Shown here: positions 10,601 to 23,866 of the stretch, piece after piece
How positions within the stretch are numbered: the first letter of the stretch is position 1
How the letters are laid out: each line of letters opens with the position of its first letter
Origin: Variovorax paradoxus
Lineage (GTDB): Bacteria > Pseudomonadota > Gammaproteobacteria > Burkholderiales > Burkholderiaceae_C
Reading direction: 5' to 3'
DNA: 64,000 nt
Assembly (NCBI RefSeq): GCF_009755665.1
Contig: NZ_CP046622.1
Coordinates: 5,397,001-5,461,000, forward strand
Translations under genes and position numbers: made by a program
Notes under the pieces: model-generated
What the model was told of the DNA's origin: nothing
Database searches by the model: none
The model's input: only the letters and a program-made list of their open reading frames with translations

Positions 10601-10881
10601 GAAGGCGTAGGGCGGTGGGCTGCGACTCTAACGCAGGGCCCTGCGCTGGGCATCTAGAACTTAAGGGTTACACGCGATTGACGAGTGTTGTTCTGATGCT
10701 CGTAGCACGTGTGAAAAATCTGACGATTCCTCTGCCTATCTGCGCGGTTTCATTGGTTTTGACATTCATAACTCTTTGTAACGAGAAAATCCCACATACC
10801 GGCATCGGTGCCGGCGGGTAGCACGCCTTCCAAAGCGGCGTGCATTGCTGTCACGCAGAGAGACCAGGGAAGAAAAACGAG
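10601..10881 (+). promoter_or_regulatory. Upstream/5' leader region of the cdiA-type gene
   Basis: This 281 bp gap is more AT-rich than its neighbours. A good -35-like TTGACA lies at 10759-10764, but no -10 at normal spacing convinces me. Two small hairpins follow: ccggca/tgccgg (10799-10814) and gcacgcc/ggcgtgc (10821-10843), which could form a structured leader. The ribosome site before the ATG at 10882 is weak (aggga at 10866-10870). Confidence 0.35.
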
Positions 10882-13800
10882 ATGAACAAGAACCTCCACC
10901 GCATTGTGTTCAATGCGAAGCGCGGACTGCGCATGGTCGTGCAAGAAACGGCCAAGAGCACGGGCAAAGGCACTTCCAAGGCCACCACCGGTGCGAGCGC
11001 CGCCATTGCCGCAGGTGCGGCAGCACTGGCGCCCATGCTCGTGGGCGCAGCGCTCGCGGGCATGCTCTCGGCTTCACCCGCCCAAGCCCAGATCGTCGGC
11101 GCGCCCAACGTTCCCGCCAACCTCCGCCCCACGGTGATGGTCGCGCCCAACGGCGTGCCGCTCATCAACATCCAGACGCCCAGCGCGGCCGGTGTTTCGC
11201 GCAACGTGTACCAGCAGTTCAACGTGGCGCCCAACGGCGCCATCCTGAACAACAGCCGCACCAACGTGCAGAGCCAGCTCGGCGGGTTCGTTCAAGGCAA
11301 TCCGTATCTCGCGACCGGCCCCGCACGCATCATCCTCAACGAAGTGAACGGCGGCAGCCCGAGCCAACTGCGCGGGTACATCGAAGTCGCGGGGCAGCGT
11401 GCCGAAGTGATCATCGCCAACCCGGCGGGCATCAGCGTCAACGGCGGCGGCTTCATCAATGCATCGCGCGCCACGCTGACCACGGGCACGCCGCAGTTCA
11501 ACGCCATTGGCGGCCTGGACAGCTTTCTGGTGCGCGGCGGCACCATCACCATCGACGGGGCCGGCCTGGACGCGAGCAAGACGGACTACGCCGCGATCCT
11601 CGCGCGTGCGGTCGAGGCCAATGCCGGCATCTGGGCCAGCGAGCTGAAGGTGGTGACGGGTGCGAACACCGTGAGCGCCGACCACAACCAGATCACGCCG
11701 ACCAGCGGCACCGGCACAGCACCCACCTTTGCGCTGGACGTGGCCGCACTCGGCGGCATGTACGCAGGCAAGATCACGCTCATCGGCACCGAGGCTGGGC
11801 TGGGCGTGCGCAACGCCGGCACGATCCAGGCCGCACCGGGCGCCACCGCGCTGATGGGTGCGGGCCAATTAGTCGTCACCAGCGCCGGGCGCCTGGAGAA
11901 CATCGGAACCATGCAGGCCACCGCCGACGCAAACCTGGCGGCAACGGGCATGGCCAACAGCGGCCGCGTAGTCAGCGGCGGCAACCTCAAGATCACGACG
12001 CAGGGCGAGCTGGCGAATGCGCTGAACGGCACGGGCGGCACCTTAGAAGGCGCGCGGCTGGAGCTCGCCAGCACGGCGGGCGACATCGACAACCGCGGCG
12101 GCACCATCCGCCAGACCAGCAGCACGGGCTTGGCGCTGAGCGCGCCCGCTTTGAGCAACACCAGCGGCGGCGTCATCGGCGCGGAGCCCGTGGCGGCTGC
12201 GCCGTCCACGCCCGACACCGGAACCGGCGGCGGCACGGGCACAGGAACTGGCACAGGCGGCACCACCAGCCCCACCCCGCCCACCGCAGGCACTGGCGCG
12301 GAGACCGGCTCCGGCGGCACCATCACGCCCGCCCCGTACGTGCCACCGTCGCCGGGTGCGATCACCGCCACCGGCACGCTCCGCAACGACGGCGGCAAGA
12401 TCTACGCCGGCGGGCCCATCAGCCTGCAAAGCGCGAACATCAACAACAACGGCGGCACCCTGAGCGTCGCCAGCATGGCCGTGAGCCAGCCGACCTTCGA
12501 CAACCACGGCGGCACGCTGAATGTCAGCAACAGCTTCAGCGCGAATGTCGATCGCTTCGACAACACTGGCGGCACGCTGAAGGCGGGCAGCCTGAACATC
12601 ACCACGACCGGCGACCTGGTCAACGTCGACGGCAAGCTGACCAGCGCCACCGACGCCACGCTCACGGTGGGCGGCCAGGCCGACAACACGCGCGGAACGA
12701 TCTCGGCAACGGGCGCGCTGACGGCCAATGTGGCGGGCGCGGTGAACAACACCGGCGGCACGCTGGTGGCGAACCAAGGCGTCGCGCTCGGCGCGGGCAG
12801 CCTGGACAGCACGCAGGGCAGCATCCAGTCGACGCAGGCTGCAGTGCAGCTGGGGGTGACTAACCAACTGACCAATGGCAGCAGCGGCACGATCGGGGCG
12901 GCCACCGACCTGAAGGTGCAGGCGGGTTCACTCGTCAACTCCAATGGCGCCAGCCTGCGCGGCGCGAACGATGTGAGTGTCGCGGTCGGCGGGGCGATGA
13001 CCAACGACGGCAGCGTCACGGCCGGACGGCACACGTCGGTCGCCGTCGGCAGCCTGCAAAGCGGCACCACCGGCGTGCTCGGCGCGGGCATCCAGAGCGA
13101 CGGCAAGCTTGGCGCGGCGGGTGACCTGGTCGTGACCACGAGCGGCGCCCTGGTCGCCAATGGCACCAACCTGGCGGCCGGCAATGCCATGCTGCAGGGC
13201 GCGAGTGTCGATCTCTCGGCCAGCCAGACCAGCGCGGTGAACATTGCGGTCACGGCCATGCAGGGCAATGTGGTTACCAGCAGCCAAGCCAAGATCGTGA
13301 CGCCCGGCACGTTGCGCATCACCGCCAACGCGCAGCCCGGCCAGACGCTGGTCAACGATGCGGGCACGCTCAATGCCGGCCAGCTGGACCTGAACGTTTC
13401 GAACATTGCCAACACGAACGGTGGCGAGATCGTGCAGACCGGCACCGCGGCGACCGGCATCGCCGTCTCGGGCACCTTGAACAACGACGGCGGACGCATC
13501 GCCAGCAATGGACAGGACCTGAGCCTCAGTGGTGACAGCATCATCAACACCGGCGGCAAGATTGAGCATGCCGGCGCCGGCACGCTGAGCATTGCGGGCG
13601 GCAGCTACAGCAGCACCGATGGCCAGATCACAGGCAACGGCGCATTGGCCGTCGCCATGTCAGGCGCCTTCAACCAGAACGGCACCAAGGCCGCGATCAG
13701 CGCCAAGCAAATCACCATCGACGCCGGCTCATTCGGCAACCGCACTAGCGCCCAGATCGTGCAGACCGGCACCGACGCGACGCGCATCACGGTAGTGGGC

Positions 13801-16800
13801 GCGTTGGACAACAGCGGCGGCACGCTGGCCAGCAACGGCAACACAAACATCGCAGCCGGCAGCTTGACGAACCAGGCCGGCACCCTCCGTGCGGCCGGGA
13901 CTTCCGACCTCGCCCTGACCGTGGGCGGCCTGCTCGACAACAGCAACAAGGGCGCGATCGGTGCGGGTGGCAACACCACCGTGGTGGCTGGCAGCCTGAA
14001 CAACGACAAGCTCGGCAGCATCACTGCTGTAGGGAGCTTGAACATCAAGGTGGATGCTGCCGCAACCAACGTCGGCGGCACGCTGGCGGCCAACGGCAAC
14101 ACCACGCTGGAAGCCGGGACGCTGGACAACAGCGGCGGCGGAGTAGTTGCCGCAGTGAATGGCAATCTGGGCGTTGAGACCCAAGGCGCAACGACGAACA
14201 ACGGCGGCACCTTGCAGGCCGGCGCCGCGACCACGCTGGTCAACAGCGGGCTGAGCAATGTCGGCGGCAAGGTCTTCGGCGACAGCCTGTCGGTCGACAC
14301 GCAAGGCAATGCACTGGACAACAGCAAGAAGGGCACGCTGGCGGCGACCACCACCGTGGGTGTGAACTCGGGTGCGCTGAACAACGATACGGGCCTGATC
14401 CAGTCCGGTGGCGCGATGACCATTCACACGGATGGCCACGTGCTCAGCAACACCAATGCAGCAGGCTATACCTCGGGCCAAGGCGGCATTGCCAGCGGCG
14501 ACACGCTGACCCTGACCGCAGGGAAGGTCATCAACACGGGCGGCTTCATTGGCGCGAAGAACGCACTGGCCGCCAACACGCAGGCCTTTTCCAACACGGG
14601 CGAAGGCCAGGTGCTCGGGCAGTCTACGGTCACGCTCGACACCCACGGTGCCGAATACGACAACACCGGTGGCGAGACGCTGGCGGTGGGCAATCTCAAC
14701 ATCTACGCGGGCACACTGACCAATACCACAGGCCTGATCCGCTCGGCGGCCACCACGACGCTCAGTGCCGCGAACCTCGTCAACAGCGACACCCGGGGGA
14801 CCGAGCAAGGCATCGAAGGCCAGAACGTCGATATCGCCGCACAGTCCATCCTCAACAACTCCGGCGCGATCCGCGCCGACCAGAACACCACACTGAGCAG
14901 CAGCGGGAACATCGACAACAGCGCCGGCCTGGTCTCCGCCGGCAAGGTGCTCACCGTCAAGGACCCCAGCACAGCCAAGACCTTGTCGGTGCTCAACACC
15001 GGCGGCACCCTGGTCGGCGGCGAGAACGTTGTCCTCGATGCGGGCTCGGTCAGCTGGGACGGCAAGCTGCTGTCGCTCCAGGACATGACGCTGACGGTCA
15101 CCCGCGACATCGCCTTTGCCGCAGGCAGCGAGACCGTCGCAAACCGCAACCTGACGATTTCGACGACCGGTGACATCACCAACAGCGGCAAGCTGGCCGC
15201 CGGCAACGATCTGACGCTCTCGGCGAGGGACATCGACAACAAAGCCACCGGCGACATCCAGGGCAAGACCACCACGCTGAATGCCAGCGGCACGCTGACC
15301 AATCGCGGCGTGATCGACGGCGGCACCACCCGCATCAACGCCGGCACGCTGGACAACCTGGGCACCGGCCGCATCTATGGCGACTGGGTCGCGATCGGTG
15401 CCGGCACGCTCAACAACAGCGCCGAGACGATTAGCGGCGTGGCCTCGGCCGGCACCATCGCGGCGCGCACCCGCCTGGACATCGGCGCCGGCACCATCAA
15501 CAACAGCAATGGCGCCCTGATCCTCAGCGCCGGCAACCTCTACATCGGCGGCAAGCTGGTGGACGGCAAGGCCAACGGTGTAGACAGCGGCGCGGGCAGC
15601 GAACTGAACAACCACGCCGCGACCATCGAGGCGGTGCAGGACATGGACATCAAGACGAATGTCCTGAACAACACCAATGGCGGCGTGACCTGGACGACGC
15701 AGACCAGCTCCGACGGCAAGCAGCACACGGAATACGCACTGCCCGGCAGCGCGACGCGCTACGACGCCAGCCAGCTGGTCTTTGTGAGTGTGGGCGGGCC
15801 CAACTTCGACTTCGCGCACATGAACGGGGTTCTGTGGCCCAGCTTCGTCAGCTACGCCGCAGGTCCTGTGGCCGGTCCGTTCGCGGGCATCCTGGTGCCG
15901 TCCGCCAACTATCCGCTGTCCCGCTACAGGGCTTATTACACGAACGCGCCGCGCAACAGCAGCGACCTGCATGGCACCCGGCAGGTGAACATCGATCAGA
16001 CCGAGTCCTATACGGAGCCGGGTGCCTGGTACTCCCGCTCCGATCCGATCTGGGCCACCTTCGGTGTGACGCCGCCGGGCACGGACACGCCGACTGACTC
16101 AACTCAAGCCCAGGCTTACCTGGATGCCCACGAGCGCCTCGACGCCGCGACCGAAGCCTTCATTCGCGACATCTACGAGAACTACGCGCGCTCCTATTAC
16201 GCCTGGGTCTACACCGAATCGACCACCACCCCGGTGCTGCAGACCTCCGCGCCCGCCCGGATCATCGCCGGCGGCAAGATGGACATTGCCGTGGGCAGCG
16301 GCACCAACGAGATGAGCCAGATCCTGGCCAACAAGGCGCTCAACGTCACAGGCGGCACCATCACCAACAAGAATGTGGAGGTCTCTGGGGCGAAGACCCG
16401 CACAGGCTGGCAGCACTTCCAGGCGGGTGTGGGGGATCCCACGCAAGTCACCCCCTACAACACCAGCGATCCCATCACCGTGACCCTGGCTGCGGCGCGA
16501 CAGGAGGGCAACGTGACGGTGGTGGGCAGCGGCGGATCCACCGGCACGCTCGCGCCTGGCCACACCAATCAGGGCGTGGCCAGCGCCAGCGGCGTTAATG
16601 CCGGCGGCCCCACGGGTGTCACGGGTGGCAGCGGTACTGCGGTAAATGCGCCGGGCGCAGGCTCTGGCGGTGCGGCAGGTCCTATCGTCCACCCGATCAT
16701 CGAGGTGAACCTGGCGTCCAGTTCCGGGACCACCCAGGTCGTGCGCACCACCTTGCCAGGCCTGACCGTGCCCACCGCCAGCCTGTTCCGCACGCATGCG

Positions 16801-19800
16801 GAAGCCTCGAGCCGCTACCTGATCGAGACCGATCCGCGTTTTGCGAACCAGCGCAACTGGCTCAGCAGCGACTACCTGCTGAACAACCTGGGCCAAGACC
16901 CCGACAACACCCTCAAGCGGCTGGGCGACGGCTTTTACGAGCAGCGCCTGATCCGCGAGCAGGTGGCGCAACTGACGGGCTACCGCTATCTGGACGGCTA
17001 CGAGAGCGATGAAGCGCAGTACACCGCGCTGATGGATGCAGGGCTTACCTTTGCGCGCCAGTACGGCCTGCGGCCCGGTATCGCGCTCAGCGACGCCCAG
17101 ATGGCACAGCTGACCAGCGACATCGTCTGGCTGGTGGAGCAGACCGTCACGCTGCCGGACGGCAGCACCCAGCGCGTGTTGGTGCCGCAGGTCTACGTGC
17201 GCGTGAAGAACGGCGACATCGACGGCTCGGGCGCCTTGCTGGCCGGCAAGGAGGTCAACATCAAGCTCGATGGCGACCTCGTCAACAGCGGCACGGTCGC
17301 CGGACGCAACACGGTCAGCATCACGGCGGAAAACATCCAGAACCTGAACGGCCGCATCTCCGGCGGCAGCCTCGACCTCAAGGCCCGGACCGACCTGAAC
17401 AACATCGGCGGCACGATCGATGCGGCCAGCCAACTCAAGATCGAGGCCGGCCGCGACATCAACGTGCGCACCACGACCAGCACCAGTGCGCTGGCGCTGG
17501 ACTTCGCGCCCGGGGCCGCGAGCCTGCGCGGTGCCACCATCGTCGACCGGGTGGCGGGGCTCTACGTGACCGGCTCCAAGGGCGTGCTGGTGGCTTCGGC
17601 CGGGCGCGACGTCAACCTGATCGGCGCCCTTGTCGCCAACAGCGGCAAGGAAGGCACGACCGAGATCGGCGCCGGCCGCGACATCAACCTGGGCACCGTC
17701 ACCACCGCCAGGCACGACACCACGGTCCGGGACGCCGGCAACTACCGCGCGGAAAGCAGCACGCGGGAAGTCGGCACCCGCATCGAGACCAGCGGCGACA
17801 TTACCCTGAGTGCTGGGCGGGATGTCAACGTGCGCGCGGCTACCATCAACAGCGCCGAAGGCGCGCTTGAGGTCGCTGCCACACGCGATATCACCATCAA
17901 TGCCGGCCAGTCGACCTCGGTGCTCAACGCCGGACGCCGCACTGAGGAGAGCGGCTTCTGGGGCAGCGACCGCAGCATGGAACAGGGCACATATGGATCG
18001 ACCGGCGTCATCGGCAGCAGCCTGGGCGGCAAGACGGTGATGCTGGATGCCGGCAACGACATCCGCATCCGCGGCTCGAACGTGGTGAGCGACCAGGGCA
18101 CCGAGCTCCGGGCGGGCAACAACATCACCATCGAAGCTGCGACGCAGACGCGTGACAGCCAGTACGTTCGCGAGGAATCGAACAGCGGCATGTTCGATGC
18201 GAACTCGGGCTGGACCTGGGGCCACCAGGATATGCGCAGTACCAGCAAGACCGGCGAGAGCACGGCCGTGGGCAGCACTGTCGGGGCGATCTCGGGAAAT
18301 GTCATGATTACCGCCGGCAACCGCTACAGCCAGGTGGGCAGCGATGTGATCGCGCCGGGCGGCGACATCGACATCCAGGCGCGCGACGTGGAGATCGTCG
18401 AGGCGCGCGAGACGAGCCGCAGCGAAAGCACGCAGAGCTTCTCTCAGGGCGGCATCACGCTGGGCATCAAGGCACCGTTGATCGATATGCTGCGGAACCT
18501 GGAGGAGACCACTCAGGCGATGGGTGACACCAAGGATGACCGCATGCAGGCGCTGGGCGCGGCGAGCATGGCACTCAGTGGCTATTCCGCATACCAGGAC
18601 ATTGCACAACAGGCAGTGACCCAAAGCAAGGGCGGCACCGGAGTGGTCAGCATGGGGGCGACCCTTACCCTCGGTAGCAGTTCGAGCGAGTCCACGCGCA
18701 CTGAGAGCAGCGACAGCTCGGCCAGTTCGCGGGTGCAGGCGGGCGGCAATGTGACCATTACCGCCACTGGCGGCGGGCGTGACTCCAACATCCTCATACG
18801 CGGCAGCGAAATCGATGCGGGCAAGAACGTCAACCTCTCGGCGGAAAACAACATCACCCTCGAGGCGGCTGCGAACACCCGCGAGCAGAGCTCCACCAGC
18901 CACAGCAGCAATGCCAGCATCGGTGTGGGCTTCACCTTCGGGCAAAGCAACGGTCTGACGATCGAGATGGCCGCTGGGAGCCAGAGCGGACGCGACAACG
19001 GCACCGATGGCGCATGGACGAACACCACCGTCAGTGCGGGCCAACAGGTCAACATCTCCAGCGGCGGCGACACCACCGTCCGGGGCGCCACGGTTTCCGG
19101 AAGCCGGATTAATGCCGACGTGGGAGGCAACCTACACATCGAGACTCTGCAGGACACCAGCACGTACCACAGCCAGAACAGTGGGGGCGGCTTCAACGCC
19201 ACCATCTGCGCTTGGTATTGCACCGGCGACAGCAGCGTGAGCGTCTATGCCCACAACATGCAAGGGGACGGCAATTTTGCGAGTGCGACGCAGCAAAGTG
19301 GCTTCCTGGCGGGGAACGGCGGCTTCGGCGTCAATGTGGCGGGCAACACCAATCTCGTGGGCGGTGTGATCAGCAGCACCGATGCCGCCGTAATTGCAGG
19401 CAGGAACAGCTTCACGACAGGCAGTCTGACGATGACCGATCTGGTCAACCACGACACGTTCCAAGGCAGCGGGTACAGCGTCAGCTTCAGCACCAGCACC
19501 TCGGGATCGAGTTCGGGCAGCGCCGGCATCGGCAGCAATGATGTCAATCAGTCGAGCCTCACGCAAAGCGGAATCTCGGGCATTGCAGGCAACGCGGCGG
19601 TGCGCACCGGAGTCGACGGCACCAACGCGCTGCAAAGGACCAATCGCGAGCGTGCCATGAGAGATGTTCAAGGGCAAGTCCTGATCACAGCGCAATTCGG
19701 ATCACAGGCGTCAAGTGCATGGGGTCAGTATGCGAACGAACGCTTGCGGAATGCCACAACCGATGAGGAGCGGGCATGCTGGGGGAGCAACGGCACATGC

Positions 19801-20976
19801 CGCGCGTCCGGGCACATGGTGATTGGCGGGCTGACAGGTGGTGCCGGGGGCGCCATTGGCGCGGTTGCGAGTACGCAGGTCGCCTCTTACGTTGACCAGA
19901 CCGTCAGAGCGTTGGGGCTCACTGGCGCTGCACATGATTCAGTGGTGGCGGGGCTGACCATGGCCATCGGTGGTGCACTAGGTGGTACATCAGGAGCCGC
20001 TGGGGCATTGAACGAGGTCACGAACAACTATCTGACGCGCACTCAATGGGAAGCGCTCGCGGAAGACATCAAGCGATGCCAAGCACGGAAGTGTACGCAG
20101 GAGGAGCAACAGGTCATACGAAACAGCTATCAGGATCTCAGCAATCAACAGAACGTGGCGTTGGCCAACTGTGCGAAAACTGGGAACTGCGTCACCCTGC
20201 GGGACGATGTGATTAATGGAACGCAGGCGATGATCGATCTGGCGGACGCAGGGAAACTGCCAATTGGCGCCGGAACTGGCAATGATCTGGGACAGTACGC
20301 GGGGCAGCGGCTGGCGAACGATCCCGCTTATCGAGAGACAGTGAGGCACTCAATCGACGTGCTGAACAATTGCAAGGCCAATCCTCAGCAATGTACGCAA
20401 CAGGCGATCACCGCTGCCGCGTTGATTGTGGCTCCGCTGCTAGGACCCGCTGGCGTTTCGTTGACTTGGGAAGGACTTGCCGTAGGCGGAACAATCGGGG
20501 CAGCAGCAAACGTGGGCGGACAGTTATATGGAAATGGCGGGAGTTTTAGTCAGCTCAATCCGCGGGATGTCGGGATGGCGTTCTATACGGGGGCGTTAAC
20601 TTATGGGGCGGGATTCATGTCGTCGATGTTTGTTAACACAGGAGGCGCGCTCGTCGGGTCGGGGATGAACACAATCTATATGAATCAAGCGCCTTCCGCT
20701 TCCGGAGGTAGCCTCTTGGGGGCCGCACTGGGAACAACGCTTGGTTATCCAGTCGGCGCTGTCACGCAGAACGGATTGAATGGTTATTTCAATCCATGGT
20801 ACCGGCCAATGTGGCAAGACCTAGGTTACACCATGCAGAGTTGGCTGCAGCCTAGTGTTGTGCCCGGGATGAGTGGCGCCGGCGTTGGCAGCTTCTTGCA
20901 GGAGTTGGCCAATGCGGGAGTCAATAACCCAAATGTTCCACAAGGTACAGGCAACCCAACTAGAGGTGGAAGATGA
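10882..20976 (+). CDS. cdiA: CdiA/BcpA-type two-partner-secretion exoprotein (contact-dependent toxin)
   Basis: Giant filamentous-haemagglutinin-like protein of 3364 residues. Starting at MNKNLHRIVFNAKRG it has an extended signal region (ESPR, ~1-28), a signal peptide ending near SASPAQAQ (~71), and a TPS secretion domain with NPYL (~140) and NPAGIS (~180). Next come NNGGTL-type haemagglutinin repeats to ~1600 with a Gly/Thr/Pro linker near 440-510, a non-repetitive Tyr-rich section (~1610-1960), a conserved segment with SSDYLL and KRLGDGFYEQRL (~1985-2020), and a second repeat block. The pretoxin region ends in EVTNNYL (3045-3051), comparable to the VENN border of CdiA. The last ~315 residues are the variable toxin part: a Cys-containing helical piece, then a Gly-rich hydrophobic stretch. 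The next gene overlaps the stop by ATGA and a CdiB-type gene follows. GC drops over the last ~1.3 kb. Toxin activity is inferred. Confidence 0.88.
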   Translation: MNKNLHRIVFNAKRGLRMVVQETAKSTGKGTSKATTGASAAIAAGAAALAPMLVGAALAGMLSASPAQAQIVGAPNVPANLRPTVMVAPNGVPLINIQTPSAAGVSRNVYQQFNVAPNGAILNNSRTNVQSQLGGFVQGNPYLATGPARIILNEVNGGSPSQLRGYIEVAGQRAEVIIANPAGISVNGGGFINASRATLTTGTPQFNAIGGLDSFLVRGGTITIDGAGLDASKTDYAAILARAVEANAGIWASELKVVTGANTVSADHNQITPTSGTGTAPTFALDVAALGGMYAGKITLIGTEAGLGVRNAGTIQAAPGATALMGAGQLVVTSAGRLENIGTMQATADANLAATGMANSGRVVSGGNLKITTQGELANALNGTGGTLEGARLELASTAGDIDNRGGTIRQTSSTGLALSAPALSNTSGGVIGAEPVAAAPSTPDTGTGGGTGTGTGTGGTTSPTPPTAGTGAETGSGGTITPAPYVPPSPGAITATGTLRNDGGKIYAGGPISLQSANINNNGGTLSVASMAVSQPTFDNHGGTLNVSNSFSANVDRFDNTGGTLKAGSLNITTTGDLVNVDGKLTSATDATLTVGGQADNTRGTISATGALTANVAGAVNNTGGTLVANQGVALGAGSLDSTQGSIQSTQAAVQLGVTNQLTNGSSGTIGAATDLKVQAGSLVNSNGASLRGANDVSVAVGGAMTNDGSVTAGRHTSVAVGSLQSGTTGVLGAGIQSDGKLGAAGDLVVTTSGALVANGTNLAAGNAMLQGASVDLSASQTSAVNIAVTAMQGNVVTSSQAKIVTPGTLRITANAQPGQTLVNDAGTLNAGQLDLNVSNIANTNGGEIVQTGTAATGIAVSGTLNNDGGRIASNGQDLSLSGDSIINTGGKIEHAGAGTLSIAGGSYSSTDGQITGNGALAVAMSGAFNQNGTKAAISAKQITIDAGSFGNRTSAQIVQTGTDATRITVVGALDNSGGTLASNGNTNIAAGSLTNQAGTLRAAGTSDLALTVGGLLDNSNKGAIGAGGNTTVVAGSLNNDKLGSITAVGSLNIKVDAAATNVGGTLAANGNTTLEAGTLDNSGGGVVAAVNGNLGVETQGATTNNGGTLQAGAATTLVNSGLSNVGGKVFGDSLSVDTQGNALDNSKKGTLAATTTVGVNSGALNNDTGLIQSGGAMTIHTDGHVLSNTNAAGYTSGQGGIASGDTLTLTAGKVINTGGFIGAKNALAANTQAFSNTGEGQVLGQSTVTLDTHGAEYDNTGGETLAVGNLNIYAGTLTNTTGLIRSAATTTLSAANLVNSDTRGTEQGIEGQNVDIAAQSILNNSGAIRADQNTTLSSSGNIDNSAGLVSAGKVLTVKDPSTAKTLSVLNTGGTLVGGENVVLDAGSVSWDGKLLSLQDMTLTVTRDIAFAAGSETVANRNLTISTTGDITNSGKLAAGNDLTLSARDIDNKATGDIQGKTTTLNASGTLTNRGVIDGGTTRINAGTLDNLGTGRIYGDWVAIGAGTLNNSAETISGVASAGTIAARTRLDIGAGTINNSNGALILSAGNLYIGGKLVDGKANGVDSGAGSELNNHAATIEAVQDMDIKTNVLNNTNGGVTWTTQTSSDGKQHTEYALPGSATRYDASQLVFVSVGGPNFDFAHMNGVLWPSFVSYAAGPVAGPFAGILVPSANYPLSRYRAYYTNAPRNSSDLHGTRQVNIDQTESYTEPGAWYSRSDPIWATFGVTPPGTDTPTDSTQAQAYLDAHERLDAATEAFIRDIYENYARSYYAWVYTESTTTPVLQTSAPARIIAGGKMDIAVGSGTNEMSQILANKALNVTGGTITNKNVEVSGAKTRTGWQHFQAGVGDPTQVTPYNTSDPITVTLAAARQEGNVTVVGSGGSTGTLAPGHTNQGVASASGVNAGGPTGVTGGSGTAVNAPGAGSGGAAGPIVHPIIEVNLASSSGTTQVVRTTLPGLTVPTASLFRTHAEASSRYLIETDPRFANQRNWLSSDYLLNNLGQDPDNTLKRLGDGFYEQRLIREQVAQLTGYRYLDGYESDEAQYTALMDAGLTFARQYGLRPGIALSDAQMAQLTSDIVWLVEQTVTLPDGSTQRVLVPQVYVRVKNGDIDGSGALLAGKEVNIKLDGDLVNSGTVAGRNTVSITAENIQNLNGRISGGSLDLKARTDLNNIGGTIDAASQLKIEAGRDINVRTTTSTSALALDFAPGAASLRGATIVDRVAGLYVTGSKGVLVASAGRDVNLIGALVANSGKEGTTEIGAGRDINLGTVTTARHDTTVRDAGNYRAESSTREVGTRIETSGDITLSAGRDVNVRAATINSAEGALEVAATRDITINAGQSTSVLNAGRRTEESGFWGSDRSMEQGTYGSTGVIGSSLGGKTVMLDAGNDIRIRGSNVVSDQGTELRAGNNITIEAATQTRDSQYVREESNSGMFDANSGWTWGHQDMRSTSKTGESTAVGSTVGAISGNVMITAGNRYSQVGSDVIAPGGDIDIQARDVEIVEARETSRSESTQSFSQGGITLGIKAPLIDMLRNLEETTQAMGDTKDDRMQALGAASMALSGYSAYQDIAQQAVTQSKGGTGVVSMGATLTLGSSSSESTRTESSDSSASSRVQAGGNVTITATGGGRDSNILIRGSEIDAGKNVNLSAENNITLEAAANTREQSSTSHSSNASIGVGFTFGQSNGLTIEMAAGSQSGRDNGTDGAWTNTTVSAGQQVNISSGGDTTVRGATVSGSRINADVGGNLHIETLQDTSTYHSQNSGGGFNATICAWYCTGDSSVSVYAHNMQGDGNFASATQQSGFLAGNGGFGVNVAGNTNLVGGVISSTDAAVIAGRNSFTTGSLTMTDLVNHDTFQGSGYSVSFSTSTSGSSSGSAGIGSNDVNQSSLTQSGISGIAGNAAVRTGVDGTNALQRTNRERAMRDVQGQVLITAQFGSQASSAWGQYANERLRNATTDEERACWGSNGTCRASGHMVIGGLTGGAGGAIGAVASTQVASYVDQTVRALGLTGAAHDSVVAGLTMAIGGALGGTSGAAGALNEVTNNYLTRTQWEALAEDIKRCQARKCTQEEQQVIRNSYQDLSNQQNVALANCAKTGNCVTLRDDVINGTQAMIDLADAGKLPIGAGTGNDLGQYAGQRLANDPAYRETVRHSIDVLNNCKANPQQCTQQAITAAALIVAPLLGPAGVSLTWEGLAVGGTIGAAANVGGQLYGNGGSFSQLNPRDVGMAFYTGALTYGAGFMSSMFVNTGGALVGSGMNTIYMNQAPSASGGSLLGAALGTTLGYPVGAVTQNGLNGYFNPWYRPMWQDLGYTMQSWLQPSVVPGMSGAGVGSFLQELANAGVNNPNVPQGTGNPTRGGR

Positions 20977-21224
20977 ACACATCGCGAAGTCTAGGCTTGA
21001 GAATGCTTGGAGTTCTGTTTTTGACCTTCCTCTTCATGTTTGGCGTCGGCTTTTCCTTGGCTGCTTTGCTTGCCATGCCCTTGATTCGCTGGGCAATCCA
21101 TGGGGTACTCTATTTTCCGGTCAGTCCATCTGAGCTTTACCGTCTGCTCCTTGTCGTCCTCGGCGTTTCTGTTGTTGCAACGGTCGTCACGTGGTTGGCC
21201 GGAAAGTACAAAGGGCGTTGGTGA
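20973..21224 (+). CDS. cdiI: Small two-helix membrane protein, candidate CDI immunity protein
   Basis: 83-residue protein, Met start overlapping the cdiA stop (ATGA 20973-20976). Two hydrophobic helices are visible at about residues 9-33 (LGVLFLTFLFMFGVGFSLAA onward) and 59-76 (LLLVVLGVSVVATVVTWL), with a short basic tail AGKYKGRW. I recognise no named family. Its position immediately after the toxin-coding end, the overlap, its small size and its low GC match immunity genes of contact-dependent inhibition systems. A membrane location would suit protection against a toxin acting in or through the inner membrane. Function is inferred from position and topology. Confidence 0.65.
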   Translation: MNTSRSLGLRMLGVLFLTFLFMFGVGFSLAALLAMPLIRWAIHGVLYFPVSPSELYRLLLVVLGVSVVATVVTWLAGKYKGRW

Positions 21225-21277: not shown

Positions 21278-23050
21278 TTGAAAACGAACTCGCTTGCCAT
21301 GTTGGCCGGCGTGCTGTTGGGCGGTCCACTATTGGCCACGGCCCAGATTTCCAGCACCCCCCAGCCCTTCGTTGAACAGCAACGCCAGCAGGAACGCGAA
21401 CGCGCGCTGCGCGAGCAGAACGAGCGCACCATCGACCAGCGCCCGCAGGCGGCGCCGCCTGCACCGGTGGCACGCATTCCCGAATCCGAAGCCCCGTGCT
21501 TTCGCATCGACCGCGTGCTGCTGGTCGGCGAGCAGGCCGAATTGTTCCAATGGGCTGTTTCTGATCTTTCGGGTCCTGAAGGCAACGATTCTCCCCTTGG
21601 CCGGTGCTTGGGCACCGCAGGCGTGAACGTGGTGCTCGCCCGCGCCCAGCAGGCGGCCATCGCGCGCGGCTTTGTCACCACCCGGGTGCTGGCCGCGCCG
21701 CAGGATCTCTCCACCGGCACCTTGACCCTGTCGCTGGTGCCCGGGCGCATCGCGGCCATCCGCCTGACGCCGGATTCTTCCTCGACGCTGCTGGGCAGCG
21801 GCGCCTTGCTGGGTTCGGCCATTCCCGCCCGGCCGGGCGCTCTCTTGAACCTGCGCGACATCGAGCAGGGGCTGGAGAACCTGAAGCGCGCCCCCACGGC
21901 CGAGGCCGACATCCAGATCGAGCCCTCGACGGCACCCAACGCCCGGCCGGGCGACAGCGACCTGGTGGTCAAGTACGTGCAGGCCAAGAAGTGGCGCGTG
22001 GCCCTGAGCCTGGACGACAGCGGCACCAAGGCCACGGGCCGCTACCAGGCCGGCGCCACGGTGTCGGTGGACAACCCCTTCGGGCTGAACGACCTGTTCT
22101 ACCTGAGCGCCAACCACAGCATCAACAGCCACTTTCTCTCGGAGCCGAGCTACGGCACCGAGGGCCAGACGGTGCACTATTCGCTGCCGTACGGTTACTG
22201 GATGCTCGGGTTCACGGCCTCGAACAGCCAGTACCACCAGAGCGTGGCGGGGCTGAACCAGGACTATGTCTACGCGGGCAAGACCAACAACGCCGAAGTC
22301 AAGCTCTCGCGCCTGCTGTACCGCGACCAGAGCCGCAAGACCACGCTGGCGCTCAAGGGCTTCCGGCGCGAGTCGCGCAACTTCGTGGACGACACCGAGG
22401 TCGATGTGCAGCACCGGGTGGTGGGTGGCTGGGAGCTCGGCCTGAACCACAAGGAGTTCATCGGCGAGGCCACGCTGGAAGGAACGCTGGCGCTCAAGCA
22501 CGGCACGGGCGGCTTTGGCGCCCGGACCTCGCCGCAGGAGATCTACCACCGCAACCACCCTGACGAGCCGCTGGAAGGCACTTCGCGCATGAAGCTGTAC
22601 ACGGCCGAGGTGAGCCTGAATGCGCCGTTCAAACTCGGGGCGCAGAAGCTGCGCTATTCGGGGCTGATCCGCGCGCAGTGGAACCGCACGCCGCTGATGC
22701 CGCAGGACCGGTTCGCCATCGGCGGGCGCTACACGGTGCGCGGCTTCGATGGCGAGACGAGCCTGATGGGGGAGCGGGGCTGGCTGATCCGCAACGACAT
22801 CGGGTGGGCGATCCCCACGGGGTCAGGCCAGAGCGGGGCGGAACTGTATGTCGGCGCCGACTACGGGCATGTGGGCGGGCGCTCGACGGTGGATGGGCTG
22901 GGGCGCAGCCTCGCGGGCGCGGTCATTGGCGTGCGGGGGCAGTGGAGCAAGCTGAGCTATGACTTCTTCATGGGGGCGCCGATCCGCAAGCCCGAGGGGT
23001 ATCGCACGGCCAGGACCACGTTTGGGTTCAATCTCAACGCAAGTTTTTGA
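21278..23050 (+). CDS. cdiB: Two-partner-secretion outer-membrane transporter (ShlB/FhaC/CdiB family)
   Basis: TpsB transporter of 590 residues that would thread the CdiA protein across the outer membrane. Order: signal peptide, a Gln/Arg-rich helical linker (~30-60, with RQQERERALREQNERT), a POTRA domain around CFRIDRVLLVGE (~85), a second POTRA with GFVTTRVLAAPQDLSTGTL, then a 16-strand barrel. The L6 motif RYTVRGFDGE and the closing GWLIRNDIGW are present, and the protein ends in an aromatic residue (NASF) as barrels do. It starts at TTG (21278), supported by AGGGAG at 21267-21272 five bases upstream. Gene order exoprotein, small gene, transporter is the Burkholderia bcpA-I-B layout rather than the E. 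coli cdiB-A-I layout. Confidence 0.92.
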   Translation: MKTNSLAMLAGVLLGGPLLATAQISSTPQPFVEQQRQQERERALREQNERTIDQRPQAAPPAPVARIPESEAPCFRIDRVLLVGEQAELFQWAVSDLSGPEGNDSPLGRCLGTAGVNVVLARAQQAAIARGFVTTRVLAAPQDLSTGTLTLSLVPGRIAAIRLTPDSSSTLLGSGALLGSAIPARPGALLNLRDIEQGLENLKRAPTAEADIQIEPSTAPNARPGDSDLVVKYVQAKKWRVALSLDDSGTKATGRYQAGATVSVDNPFGLNDLFYLSANHSINSHFLSEPSYGTEGQTVHYSLPYGYWMLGFTASNSQYHQSVAGLNQDYVYAGKTNNAEVKLSRLLYRDQSRKTTLALKGFRRESRNFVDDTEVDVQHRVVGGWELGLNHKEFIGEATLEGTLALKHGTGGFGARTSPQEIYHRNHPDEPLEGTSRMKLYTAEVSLNAPFKLGAQKLRYSGLIRAQWNRTPLMPQDRFAIGGRYTVRGFDGETSLMGERGWLIRNDIGWAIPTGSGQSGAELYVGADYGHVGGRSTVDGLGRSLAGAVIGVRGQWSKLSYDFFMGAPIRKPEGYRTARTTFGFNLNASF

Positions 23051-23140
23051 CAGACGTTGGACCGCTGCGCGCCGAGCAGCAGCCTGAGATCAACTGAGTC
23101 CGCCTTAAAAATTCCAAAATTTCAAATGAGAGGGAGCGCC

Positions 23141-23866
23141 ATGAAACGCATCATCACCGTCTGCACCATTGCAGTCATGCTCGTTGCTTGCGCCGGTCGG
23201 CCCAAGCAAGCGGCCAATGAAGAGCCAGAGCCGCTGTCACATCCCCGGGTCGAGATCGTCTACAACGCCAAGTCCGAACTAGCTGTTCTGGATACCGGCG
23301 CGACGCCGACAGTCGGGCTCGGCGGTTTGCTCGGGCCTGTGGGAGTGCTGGTGGCGATTGGCGCTGACGTTGCCAATCGCAGCAACTCCATGGACCAGGT
23401 CGCGAGCCGCAGCAAACGTTTTCAGCAGGCGATAGAAGAAAGCCAGGGCGAGCTGACGCTTCATCGGGAATACGCTGAACGCCTGGCTGAAGCCATGCGC
23501 GCAACAGGCCGAGAAGTCAAGCTCACGCCAAGTAATCGCGCCACAGGCGCTGCGCGAAAAATGGAACTCGCCGGCCTGACGGCGACGCCGGGCTACGAGG
23601 TGATGCTGCTGCGCATCACCGCCGGCTACGGAGCGCCCAGCTTGACCGCGGACTTCCGGCCAATCATTTCGGTGGAGTACGCACTGCGCGACGACAAGCT
23701 CCAGCCCATCACGTGGAACTCCGTCACGTCAAACCGGGGCGGACCCACCTACTTTGCCTATGACACCTTGCTCAAAGAAAACAAGGCAGCATACGAAGGC
23801 GTGCGCCAGGAGCTGTTCGCCACCGTCGGGCGGGTGATGAACAACGACTTTCCAAAACAGGAATAG
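23141..23866 (+). CDS. Lipoprotein of unknown function at the end of the CDI locus
   Basis: 241-residue protein starting at MKRIITVCTIAV with a lipobox LVAC (Cys at about 18) and a good ribosome site (gaggga just upstream). The mature part is soluble, with a Gly/Val-rich stretch GLGGLLGPVGVLVAIGADVA (~67-86), a coiled region RSKRFQQAIEESQGELTLHR, and no family I recognise. It is in the same orientation 90 nt after cdiB, so it may be in the same transcript. Burkholderia CDI operons include a small lipoprotein gene (bcpO), but that lies between immunity and transporter genes and is smaller, so equivalence is not established. The downstream neighbour is convergent. Confidence 0.75.
   Translation: MKRIITVCTIAVMLVACAGRPKQAANEEPEPLSHPRVEIVYNAKSELAVLDTGATPTVGLGGLLGPVGVLVAIGADVANRSNSMDQVASRSKRFQQAIEESQGELTLHREYAERLAEAMRATGREVKLTPSNRATGAARKMELAGLTATPGYEVMLLRITAGYGAPSLTADFRPIISVEYALRDDKLQPITWNSVTSNRGGPTYFAYDTLLKENKAAYEGVRQELFATVGRVMNNDFPKQE

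What the first reader, a model, noticed from the sequence alone, without database searches (positions are those of the whole stretch)
20017..21224. Uncharacterised membrane-type toxin/immunity pair
After EVTNNYL (residue ~3050) the protein continues 315 residues. The last ~180 are Gly-rich and hydrophobic, with no His/Asp/Glu/Lys pattern of the nuclease, deaminase or ADP-ribosylating toxins I know. The following 83-residue protein has two membrane helices, which is what an immunity protein against a membrane-inserting (ionophore-like) toxin should look like. I recognise no named family for either.
Basis: inference. Interest (0 to 1): 0.82.

Follow-up and report, generated by a model that had tools for sequence, protein, structure and literature searches.

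The report
Contact-delivered membrane-depolarising toxin with immunity gene
A soil bacterium (Variovorax) carries a giant surface protein whose tip is very probably a membrane-depolarising toxin aimed at neighbouring bacteria, plus a tiny membrane protein that should protect its owner; both look like members of a family described in E. coli in 2024, so this is a new member rather than a new kind of weapon.

Summary
After the VENN-like motif EVTNNYL (20014-20034) a CdiA-type protein continues for 313 residues: a 123-residue domain with six Cys, then a 190-residue Gly-rich domain without Lys, His or Cys. An 83-residue two-helix gene overlaps its stop codon (ATGA). The functional guess is well supported by homology: a profile built without E. 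coli sequences finds the C-terminus of E. coli EC93 CdiA1, a proven membrane-depolarising toxin (E 5.4e-12 among 1162 frames; best reversed frame 3.9), over the first 100 or so positions including the glycine zipper. All 28 module ends examined are followed by a short hydrophobic ORF (20 with two or more membrane windows at the strict cut-off, 27 at a lenient one); three loci with a related entry domain but other toxins are not. What fails is 'no named family': Halvorsen et al. 2024 described CDI alpha-helical ionophores (type 10) with two-helix immunity proteins and reported relatives in Burkholderiales. Local features are a Trp-rich segment absent from EC93 and an uncharacterised entry domain. 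New member of a known kind.

The parts
10840..20976 (+). cdiA-like two-partner secretion effector (GTG ORF 3378 aa; likely start ATG 10882, 3364 aa)
   Evidence: Pfam TPS 1.7e-52, ESPR 1e-11, Fil_haemagg_2 1.8e-50, all over cut-off
20014..20034 (+). VENN-like CT boundary EVTNNYL; relatives read AVENNYL or AAANNYL
20035..20403 (+). N-terminal CT domain (presumed cytoplasm-entry domain), 123 aa, six Cys in three close pairs (positions 15/20, 46/52, 113/120)
   Evidence: related domains (31-38% identical) precede a papain-fold toxin (L043), a CdiA_C toxin (L044) and an unnamed toxin (L045) in other genomes of the genus
20404..20973 (+). ionophore toxin domain, 190 aa
   Evidence: homologous to the EC93 CdiA1 C-terminus: hmmsearch 5.4e-12, profile positions 12-112 on residues 2993-3093 of the 3136-residue frame; BLASTP 7e-6; hhalign probability 93.5
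20707..20757 (+). glycine zipper GSLLGAALGTTLGYPVG; the last four glycines align with EC93, the first has the same spacing but falls in a gap of the alignment
20797..20826 (+). Trp-rich segment WYRPMWQDLG after the zipper, absent from EC93
20973..21224 (+). cdiI-like immunity gene, 83 aa, two predicted membrane helices, overlaps the toxin stop (ATGA)
   Evidence: dN/dS 0.22-0.25; a hydrophobic neighbour at 28 of 28 module ends examined
21278..23050 (+). cdiB-like outer-membrane transporter
   Evidence: Pfam ShlB 1.9e-104, POTRA_3, POTRA_2
23057..23866 (+). lipoprotein-like gene after cdiB (probable start ATG 23141, lipobox-like stretch by eye); belonging to the locus is inferred only
   Evidence: no Pfam or NCBIfam match at E <= 1

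Best explanation
This is a contact-dependent growth inhibition locus (cdiA-cdiI-cdiB) of a Variovorax. CdiB exports the CdiA stalk; on contact with a susceptible bacterium the C-terminal 313 residues are released at the VENN-like motif into the target's periplasm. The Cys-rich entry domain docks on an unknown inner-membrane protein, and the glycine-zipper domain inserts into the inner membrane and collapses the membrane potential. The 83-aa two-helix protein sits in the producer's own inner membrane and blocks the toxin by binding its helices. Shown here: sequence homology to an experimentally proven ionophore toxin, gene architecture, purifying selection, recurrent pairing with hydrophobic neighbours. 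Inferred from published E. coli work: delivery, cleavage, depolarisation, receptor use and immunity.
For: Profile A1 (12 relatives, no E. coli) finds the EC93 CdiA1 frame at E 5.4e-12 among 1162 frames from 100 kb of plasmid pCP127; the only domain with a score above zero lies in the C-terminus, residues 2993-3093 of 3136. The best reversed frame scores E 3.9, and the CdiA2 frame of the same plasmid, whose toxin is Ntox25, is not listed at E <= 10. BLASTP of the window domain against the EC93 CT: 36% over 70 aa, E 7e-6. The zipper glycines that the paper calls the only shared element of the family (Gly168/172/176 of CT-EC93) align with window domain glycines 106/110/114 (numbering of EC93 counted from the V of VENN by me). 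At 28 of 28 module ends the longest ORF starting within 60 bases of the toxin stop is hydrophobic, 67-116 aa long, starting at -52 to +1; 20 have two or more windows at KD 1.6 and 27 at KD 1.2, against 0 of 3 for loci with a related entry domain and another toxin. Toxin and immunity diverge together: toxin identity to the window 99, 94, 94, 59, 35, 39, 31 and 30-32%; immunity of the same loci 100, 86, 86, 45, 22, 22, 25 and 13-14% (L007, L008, L009, L010, L012, L016, L017, three L023 cassettes). dN/dS of the toxin domain is 0.08 and 0.09 against L008 and L009. Representatives of each E. coli group depolarise targets and cognate immunity protects (PMC11630599 section 6).
Against: The match to EC93 covers profile positions 12-112 of 174; the last third of the domain is not matched. 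The immunity protein does not clearly match EC93 CdiI: hhalign probability 39.7; hmmsearch E 0.0057, second to a minus-strand frame at 0.004. The three-glycine motif alone is weak: 68.8% of shuffles of this Gly-rich domain contain it (the five-glycine form 3.3%), and it is missing in 3 of the 16 toxins aligned. The toxin domain has only one strongly hydrophobic stretch by hydropathy. No structure could be predicted. Nothing was tested at the bench.
Confidence: 0.86

Rival explanations
1. The Gly-rich end is only a structural tail or pre-toxin linker of an adhesin, and the small membrane gene is unrelated.
For: Relatives on Enterobacter plasmids are annotated 'adhesin' or 'hemagglutinin repeat-containing protein'.
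Against: The domain ends at the stop codon that overlaps the small gene; 28 of 28 module ends examined have a close hydrophobic neighbour; toxin-end plus immunity cassettes recur without the adhesin stalk; homology to a proven ionophore.
Confidence: 0.06
2. A membrane-depolarising toxin of the beta-barrel Ntox25 type rather than the helical type.
For: Ntox25 CdiA-CTs also disrupt the membrane potential (PMC11630599 discussion).
Against: No Ntox25 match in Pfam scans; the profile matches the EC93 CdiA1 C-terminus and not the CdiA2 frame that carries Ntox25.
Confidence: 0.03
3. A cytosolic enzyme toxin of unknown fold.
For: A related entry domain precedes a papain-fold toxin and a CdiA_C toxin in other genomes of the genus.
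Against: No Lys, His or Cys in the domain and only four acidic residues; hydrophobic two-helix neighbour; no enzyme family match over cut-off.
Confidence: 0.03

Closest known systems
CdiA1-CT/CdiI of E. coli EC93 (plasmid pCP127), group 1 CDI ionophore
   Same: Homologous domain with aligned zipper glycines, two-part CT after a VENN-type motif, 79-aa two-helix immunity gene whose start overlaps the toxin stop
   Different: EC93 lacks the WYRPxWxDxG segment; its entry region shows no similarity to the window's entry-domain profile (hhalign probability 0.1); gene order is cdiBAI there and cdiAIB here
CDI alpha-helical ionophore family, 'type 10' (Halvorsen et al. 2024, PMC11630599)
   Same: Glycine zipper, great sequence diversity, small hydrophobic immunity proteins of 72-100 aa; the authors report relatives in Burkholderiales
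   Different: Six groups were defined in E. coli by entry domain; the window was compared here with EC93 (group 1) only
cdiAIB gene arrangement of Burkholderia, Variovorax and Cupriavidus (PMC4364669)
   Same: cdiA-cdiI-cdiB order, stated there for Variovorax
   Different: The CT boundary here is VENN-like, not (E/Q)LYN; the lipoprotein-like gene lies after cdiB, not between cdiI and cdiB like BcpO

Membership tests
CDI two-partner effector (CdiA) | ESPR plus TPS domain, haemagglutinin repeats, CdiB partner | tested here: met
   Pfam matches over cut-off
CDI two-partner effector (CdiA) | variable CT after VENN or (E/Q)LYN, with an adjacent immunity gene | tested here: met
   VENN-like EVTNNYL, AVENNYL in a relative; overlapping gene. 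No PT-VENN match appeared in the Pfam scan
CDI alpha-helical ionophore (type 10) | sequence homology to CT-EC93 | tested here: met
   over about the first 100 of 174 profile positions
CDI alpha-helical ionophore (type 10) | Gly-x3-Gly-x3-Gly zipper at the equivalent place | tested here: met
CDI alpha-helical ionophore (type 10) | small (72-100 aa) hydrophobic two-helix immunity protein, N and C ends in the cytoplasm | tested here: met
   83 aa with two helices by hydropathy; the orientation was judged by eye from positive ends and is not tested
CDI alpha-helical ionophore (type 10) | immunity protein homologous to a known CdiI of the family | tested here: inconclusive
   probability 39.7; E 0.0057, rank 2; the paper's abstract calls the immunity proteins highly polymorphic
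CDI alpha-helical ionophore (type 10) | five-helix bundle | not testable with these tools
CDI alpha-helical ionophore (type 10) | depolarises target cells; cognate CdiI protects | not testable with these tools
   needs a bench assay
Ntox25 beta-barrel ionophore (type 14) | Ntox25 domain (Pfam) | tested here: not met
   no match

The most novel reading that the evidence does not exclude
The Trp-rich WYRPxWxDxG segment after the glycine zipper, kept in the Variovorax and order relatives and in part in some Enterobacter cassettes but absent from EC93, is an added membrane-interface element, so these toxins form a subfamily with a pore build or ion selectivity different from EC93.
Probability: 0.2. 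Interest if true: 0.45.

Novelty: new member of a known kind. Interest (0 to 1): 0.3.

Why it matters
It places a recently described toxin family in a soil and plant-associated genus, where it may decide which strains coexist, and it gives an identity to a toxin/immunity pair that the family libraries searched leave unnamed. A related entry domain carries a papain-fold toxin and a CdiA_C toxin in other genomes of the genus, so the open question of how ionophores and cytosolic toxins use one entry route could be tested there; shared entry routes are already known in E. coli (PMC11630599 Table 2). Three Enterobacter cassettes with 80 of 80 identical first toxin residues but immunity proteins sharing 29-34 of 85 residues point to the later part of the toxin as the place that decides which immunity protein fits.

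Tried and rejected
Pfam and NCBIfam scans of the toxin region and immunity protein: sub-threshold noise only (DUF3482, BrxC_BrxD, TctB and others). Of 12 aligned toxins scanned one by one, one weakly matched 'Glycine zipper 2TM domain' (best E 0.0015). The PDB profile search gave 8 sequences at E <= 1, six of them named photosystem I subunit O or PsaO (best E 0.0037), mostly over the Trp-rich part; I treat this as chance or composition, without a test. Plasmid tblastn with the immunity protein and with the entry domain found nothing; a viral-contig scan found no relative. Immunity homology to EC93 CdiI stayed inconclusive.

Rows dropped before counting module ends: L018 and L019 (weak matches, no module-like ORF seen), L036 (Rhs-type protein, E 2.8e-4), L015 (same place as L014), L011 (read as L054 instead), L020-L022 (same contigs as L007, L008, L010), and copies on L024 and L025 of modules counted on L023. 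EC93's orphan module pieces were not counted. The 28 module ends are not independent: L007 is nearly the window itself, and eight come from three related Enterobacter plasmids. The control of three loci is small; the ORF chosen after L043 was a mechanical pick and the one after L045 runs off the locus. The seven further entry-domain hits outside the window (L056-L062) were not examined. E. coli relatives found by DNA (135 of 5426 genomes) were not fetched.
Full report
What is there. The window lies in a one-contig genome of 5.57 Mb; the three named loci that encode the toxin domain are all Variovorax. ORF 10840-20976 is a CdiA-type two-partner effector: ESPR, TPS domain and haemagglutinin repeats over cut-off. 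It is followed by an 83-aa gene at 20973-21224, a CdiB/ShlB transporter at 21278-23050 (ShlB 1.9e-104) and a lipoprotein-like gene. The order cdiA-cdiI-cdiB is stated in the literature for Burkholderia, Variovorax and Cupriavidus (PMC4364669; one passage and the Introduction seen).

The C-terminal region. EVTNNYL (20014-20034) is a VENN variant: relatives read AVENNYL or AAANNYL. A 123-aa domain with six Cys follows, then a 190-aa domain with 37 Gly, no Lys, His or Cys, 2 Asp and 2 Glu. Only its first few 19-residue windows pass KD 1.6 (peak 1.9); beyond domain residue 30 the peak is 1.15, at the zipper. The 83-aa ORF begins inside the toxin stop codon (ATGA). Against L008 and L009 (94% identical toxin) dN/dS is 0.08 and 0.09 for the toxin domain, 0.04 and 0.07 for the entry domain and 0.22 and 0.25 for the immunity gene; the competing overlapping frame gives 1.76 on 51 codons against L008. 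So both genes look real, and immunity changes faster.

Relatives. The toxin domain was found in 9 of 100 genomes of the genus including the window's own, two of them with fragments only; in 5 of 300 genomes of the order, own included, two being weak matches later dropped; in 3 plasmid records, all Enterobacter; and by profile in 9 of 398 genomes of the phylum, own included, one being the Rhs match later dropped. I examined 28 module ends (window, genus, order and class relatives, Enterobacter cassettes, EC93), taking the longest ORF that starts within 60 bases of the toxin stop. In 28 of 28 it is hydrophobic, 67-116 aa long and starts at -52 to +1; 20 have two or more membrane windows at KD 1.6 and 27 at KD 1.2. 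They are not independent samples. Three loci of the genus with a related entry domain (31-38% identical) carry other toxins: a papain-fold glutamine deamidase match (L043, E 1.1e-11), a CdiA_C match (L044, E 1.3e-18) and one without a match (L045). The ORFs after them have no membrane window (0 of 3; a small control with two imperfect picks). So a change of toxin goes with a change in the kind of neighbour.

Link to a proven toxin. Profile A1, built from 12 relatives without any E. coli sequence, was run against 1162 six-frame reading frames of two 50 kb stretches of E. coli EC93 plasmid pCP127. It hit the CdiA1 frame at E 5.4e-12, with the scoring domain at residues 2993-3093 of 3136, and two pieces of a nearby orphan module (6.2e-13 and 1.3e-6); the next frame is at E 3.1. 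The best reversed frame scored 3.9, and the CdiA2 frame (toxin Ntox25) is not listed at E <= 10. The match covers profile positions 12-112 of 174; the last third is not matched. BLASTP of the window domain with the EC93 CT gives 36% over 70 aa, E 7e-6; hhalign gives 93.5% probability. In the alignment four glycines of GSLLGAALGTTLGYPVG coincide with EC93 GPMVGNAIGTALGNKAG, among them Gly168/172/176, named as the only shared element of the family; the first glycine has the same spacing but falls in a gap. The motif by itself is weak: 68.8% of shuffles hold a three-glycine zipper and 3.3% a five-glycine one, and 3 of 16 aligned toxins lack it. The immunity proteins are too diverged to link by sequence, and the EC93 entry region is not similar to the window's.

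What is known. Of Halvorsen et al. 2024 (PMC11630599) I saw the abstract, sections 6, 8, 14 and 24 and searched passages. It describes CDI alpha-helical ionophores (type 10) with variable entry domains, a predicted five-helix toxin domain, two-helix immunity proteins of 72-100 aa, depolarisation shown for representatives of each E. coli group, and relatives in Burkholderiales among others. [quoted passage not shown] The review PMC9086364 (passages) says Burkholderia sometimes carry orphan modules between cdiI and cdiB. PMC8190604 (passages) gave the EC93 accession. A search for Variovorax with 'contact-dependent growth inhibition' listed 7 papers, of which I opened PMC4364669; no title or shown abstract start describes a Variovorax ionophore. 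A search for CdiA, ionophore and Burkholderiales listed only PMC11630599. Papers outside the held library were not seen.

What differs here. A Trp-rich segment WYRPMWQDLG (20797-20826) after the zipper is kept, with changes, in the aligned Variovorax and order relatives (L007-L010, L012, L013, L016, L017) and in part in some Enterobacter cassettes, but not in EC93. The entry domain of the window has no Pfam match; one of six aligned relatives weakly matches DUF6862 (E 5.2e-5). In three Enterobacter cassettes the first 80 toxin residues are identical (80/80) and differences gather towards the end, while their immunity proteins share 29-34 of 85 residues. This agrees with the E. coli predictions that helices 1, 4 and 5 contact the immunity protein, though it does not test them. 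A toxin-end remnant with an 83-aa immunity gene occurs in G487 (L014/L052), a displaced toxin end with one in G473 (L054), and a second immunity-like gene in G489 (L053).

Verdict. It is a member of a published family, so interest is modest. Not shown here: structure, membrane depolarisation, receptor, and specificity of the 83-aa protein.

Noticed in passing
L023 1-5274, L024, L025 (Enterobacter plasmids): Arrays of orphan ionophore-type toxin/immunity cassettes, several with identical starts and divergent ends; annotated as 'adhesin' and 'hypothetical protein', some immunity ORFs without a listed gene in PLSDB's (incomplete) table.
   Followed up: partly
L026 21085-21762: Two adjacent frames on EC93 plasmid pCP127 match the profile: an interrupted orphan ionophore module after the cdiA2 locus. 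Left as separate pieces.
   Followed up: no
L053 2422-2745: A second immunity-like ORF (107 aa, 43% identical to the window's) follows the cognate one in another genome of the genus.
   Followed up: partly
L052 7923-8311 and L054 minus strand 1-510: A toxin-end remnant and a displaced toxin end, each with an 83-aa immunity gene, in two other genomes of the genus.
   Followed up: partly
   Followed up: no
G000, six places listed: The genome holds six TPS-domain matches over cut-off, one of them in this locus, so there are other two-partner proteins outside the window.
   Followed up: no
rows H6, H8, H9, H12, H13: E. coli proteins matched by DNA of Enterobacter ionophore cassettes are named 'contact-dependent inhibition effector tRNA nuclease' (EC93 CdiA1 too); for these toxins probably a wrong activity label.
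   Followed up: no
window 23057-23866: Lipoprotein-like gene directly after cdiB without a family match; unlike BcpO it lies after, not before, cdiB.
   Followed up: no
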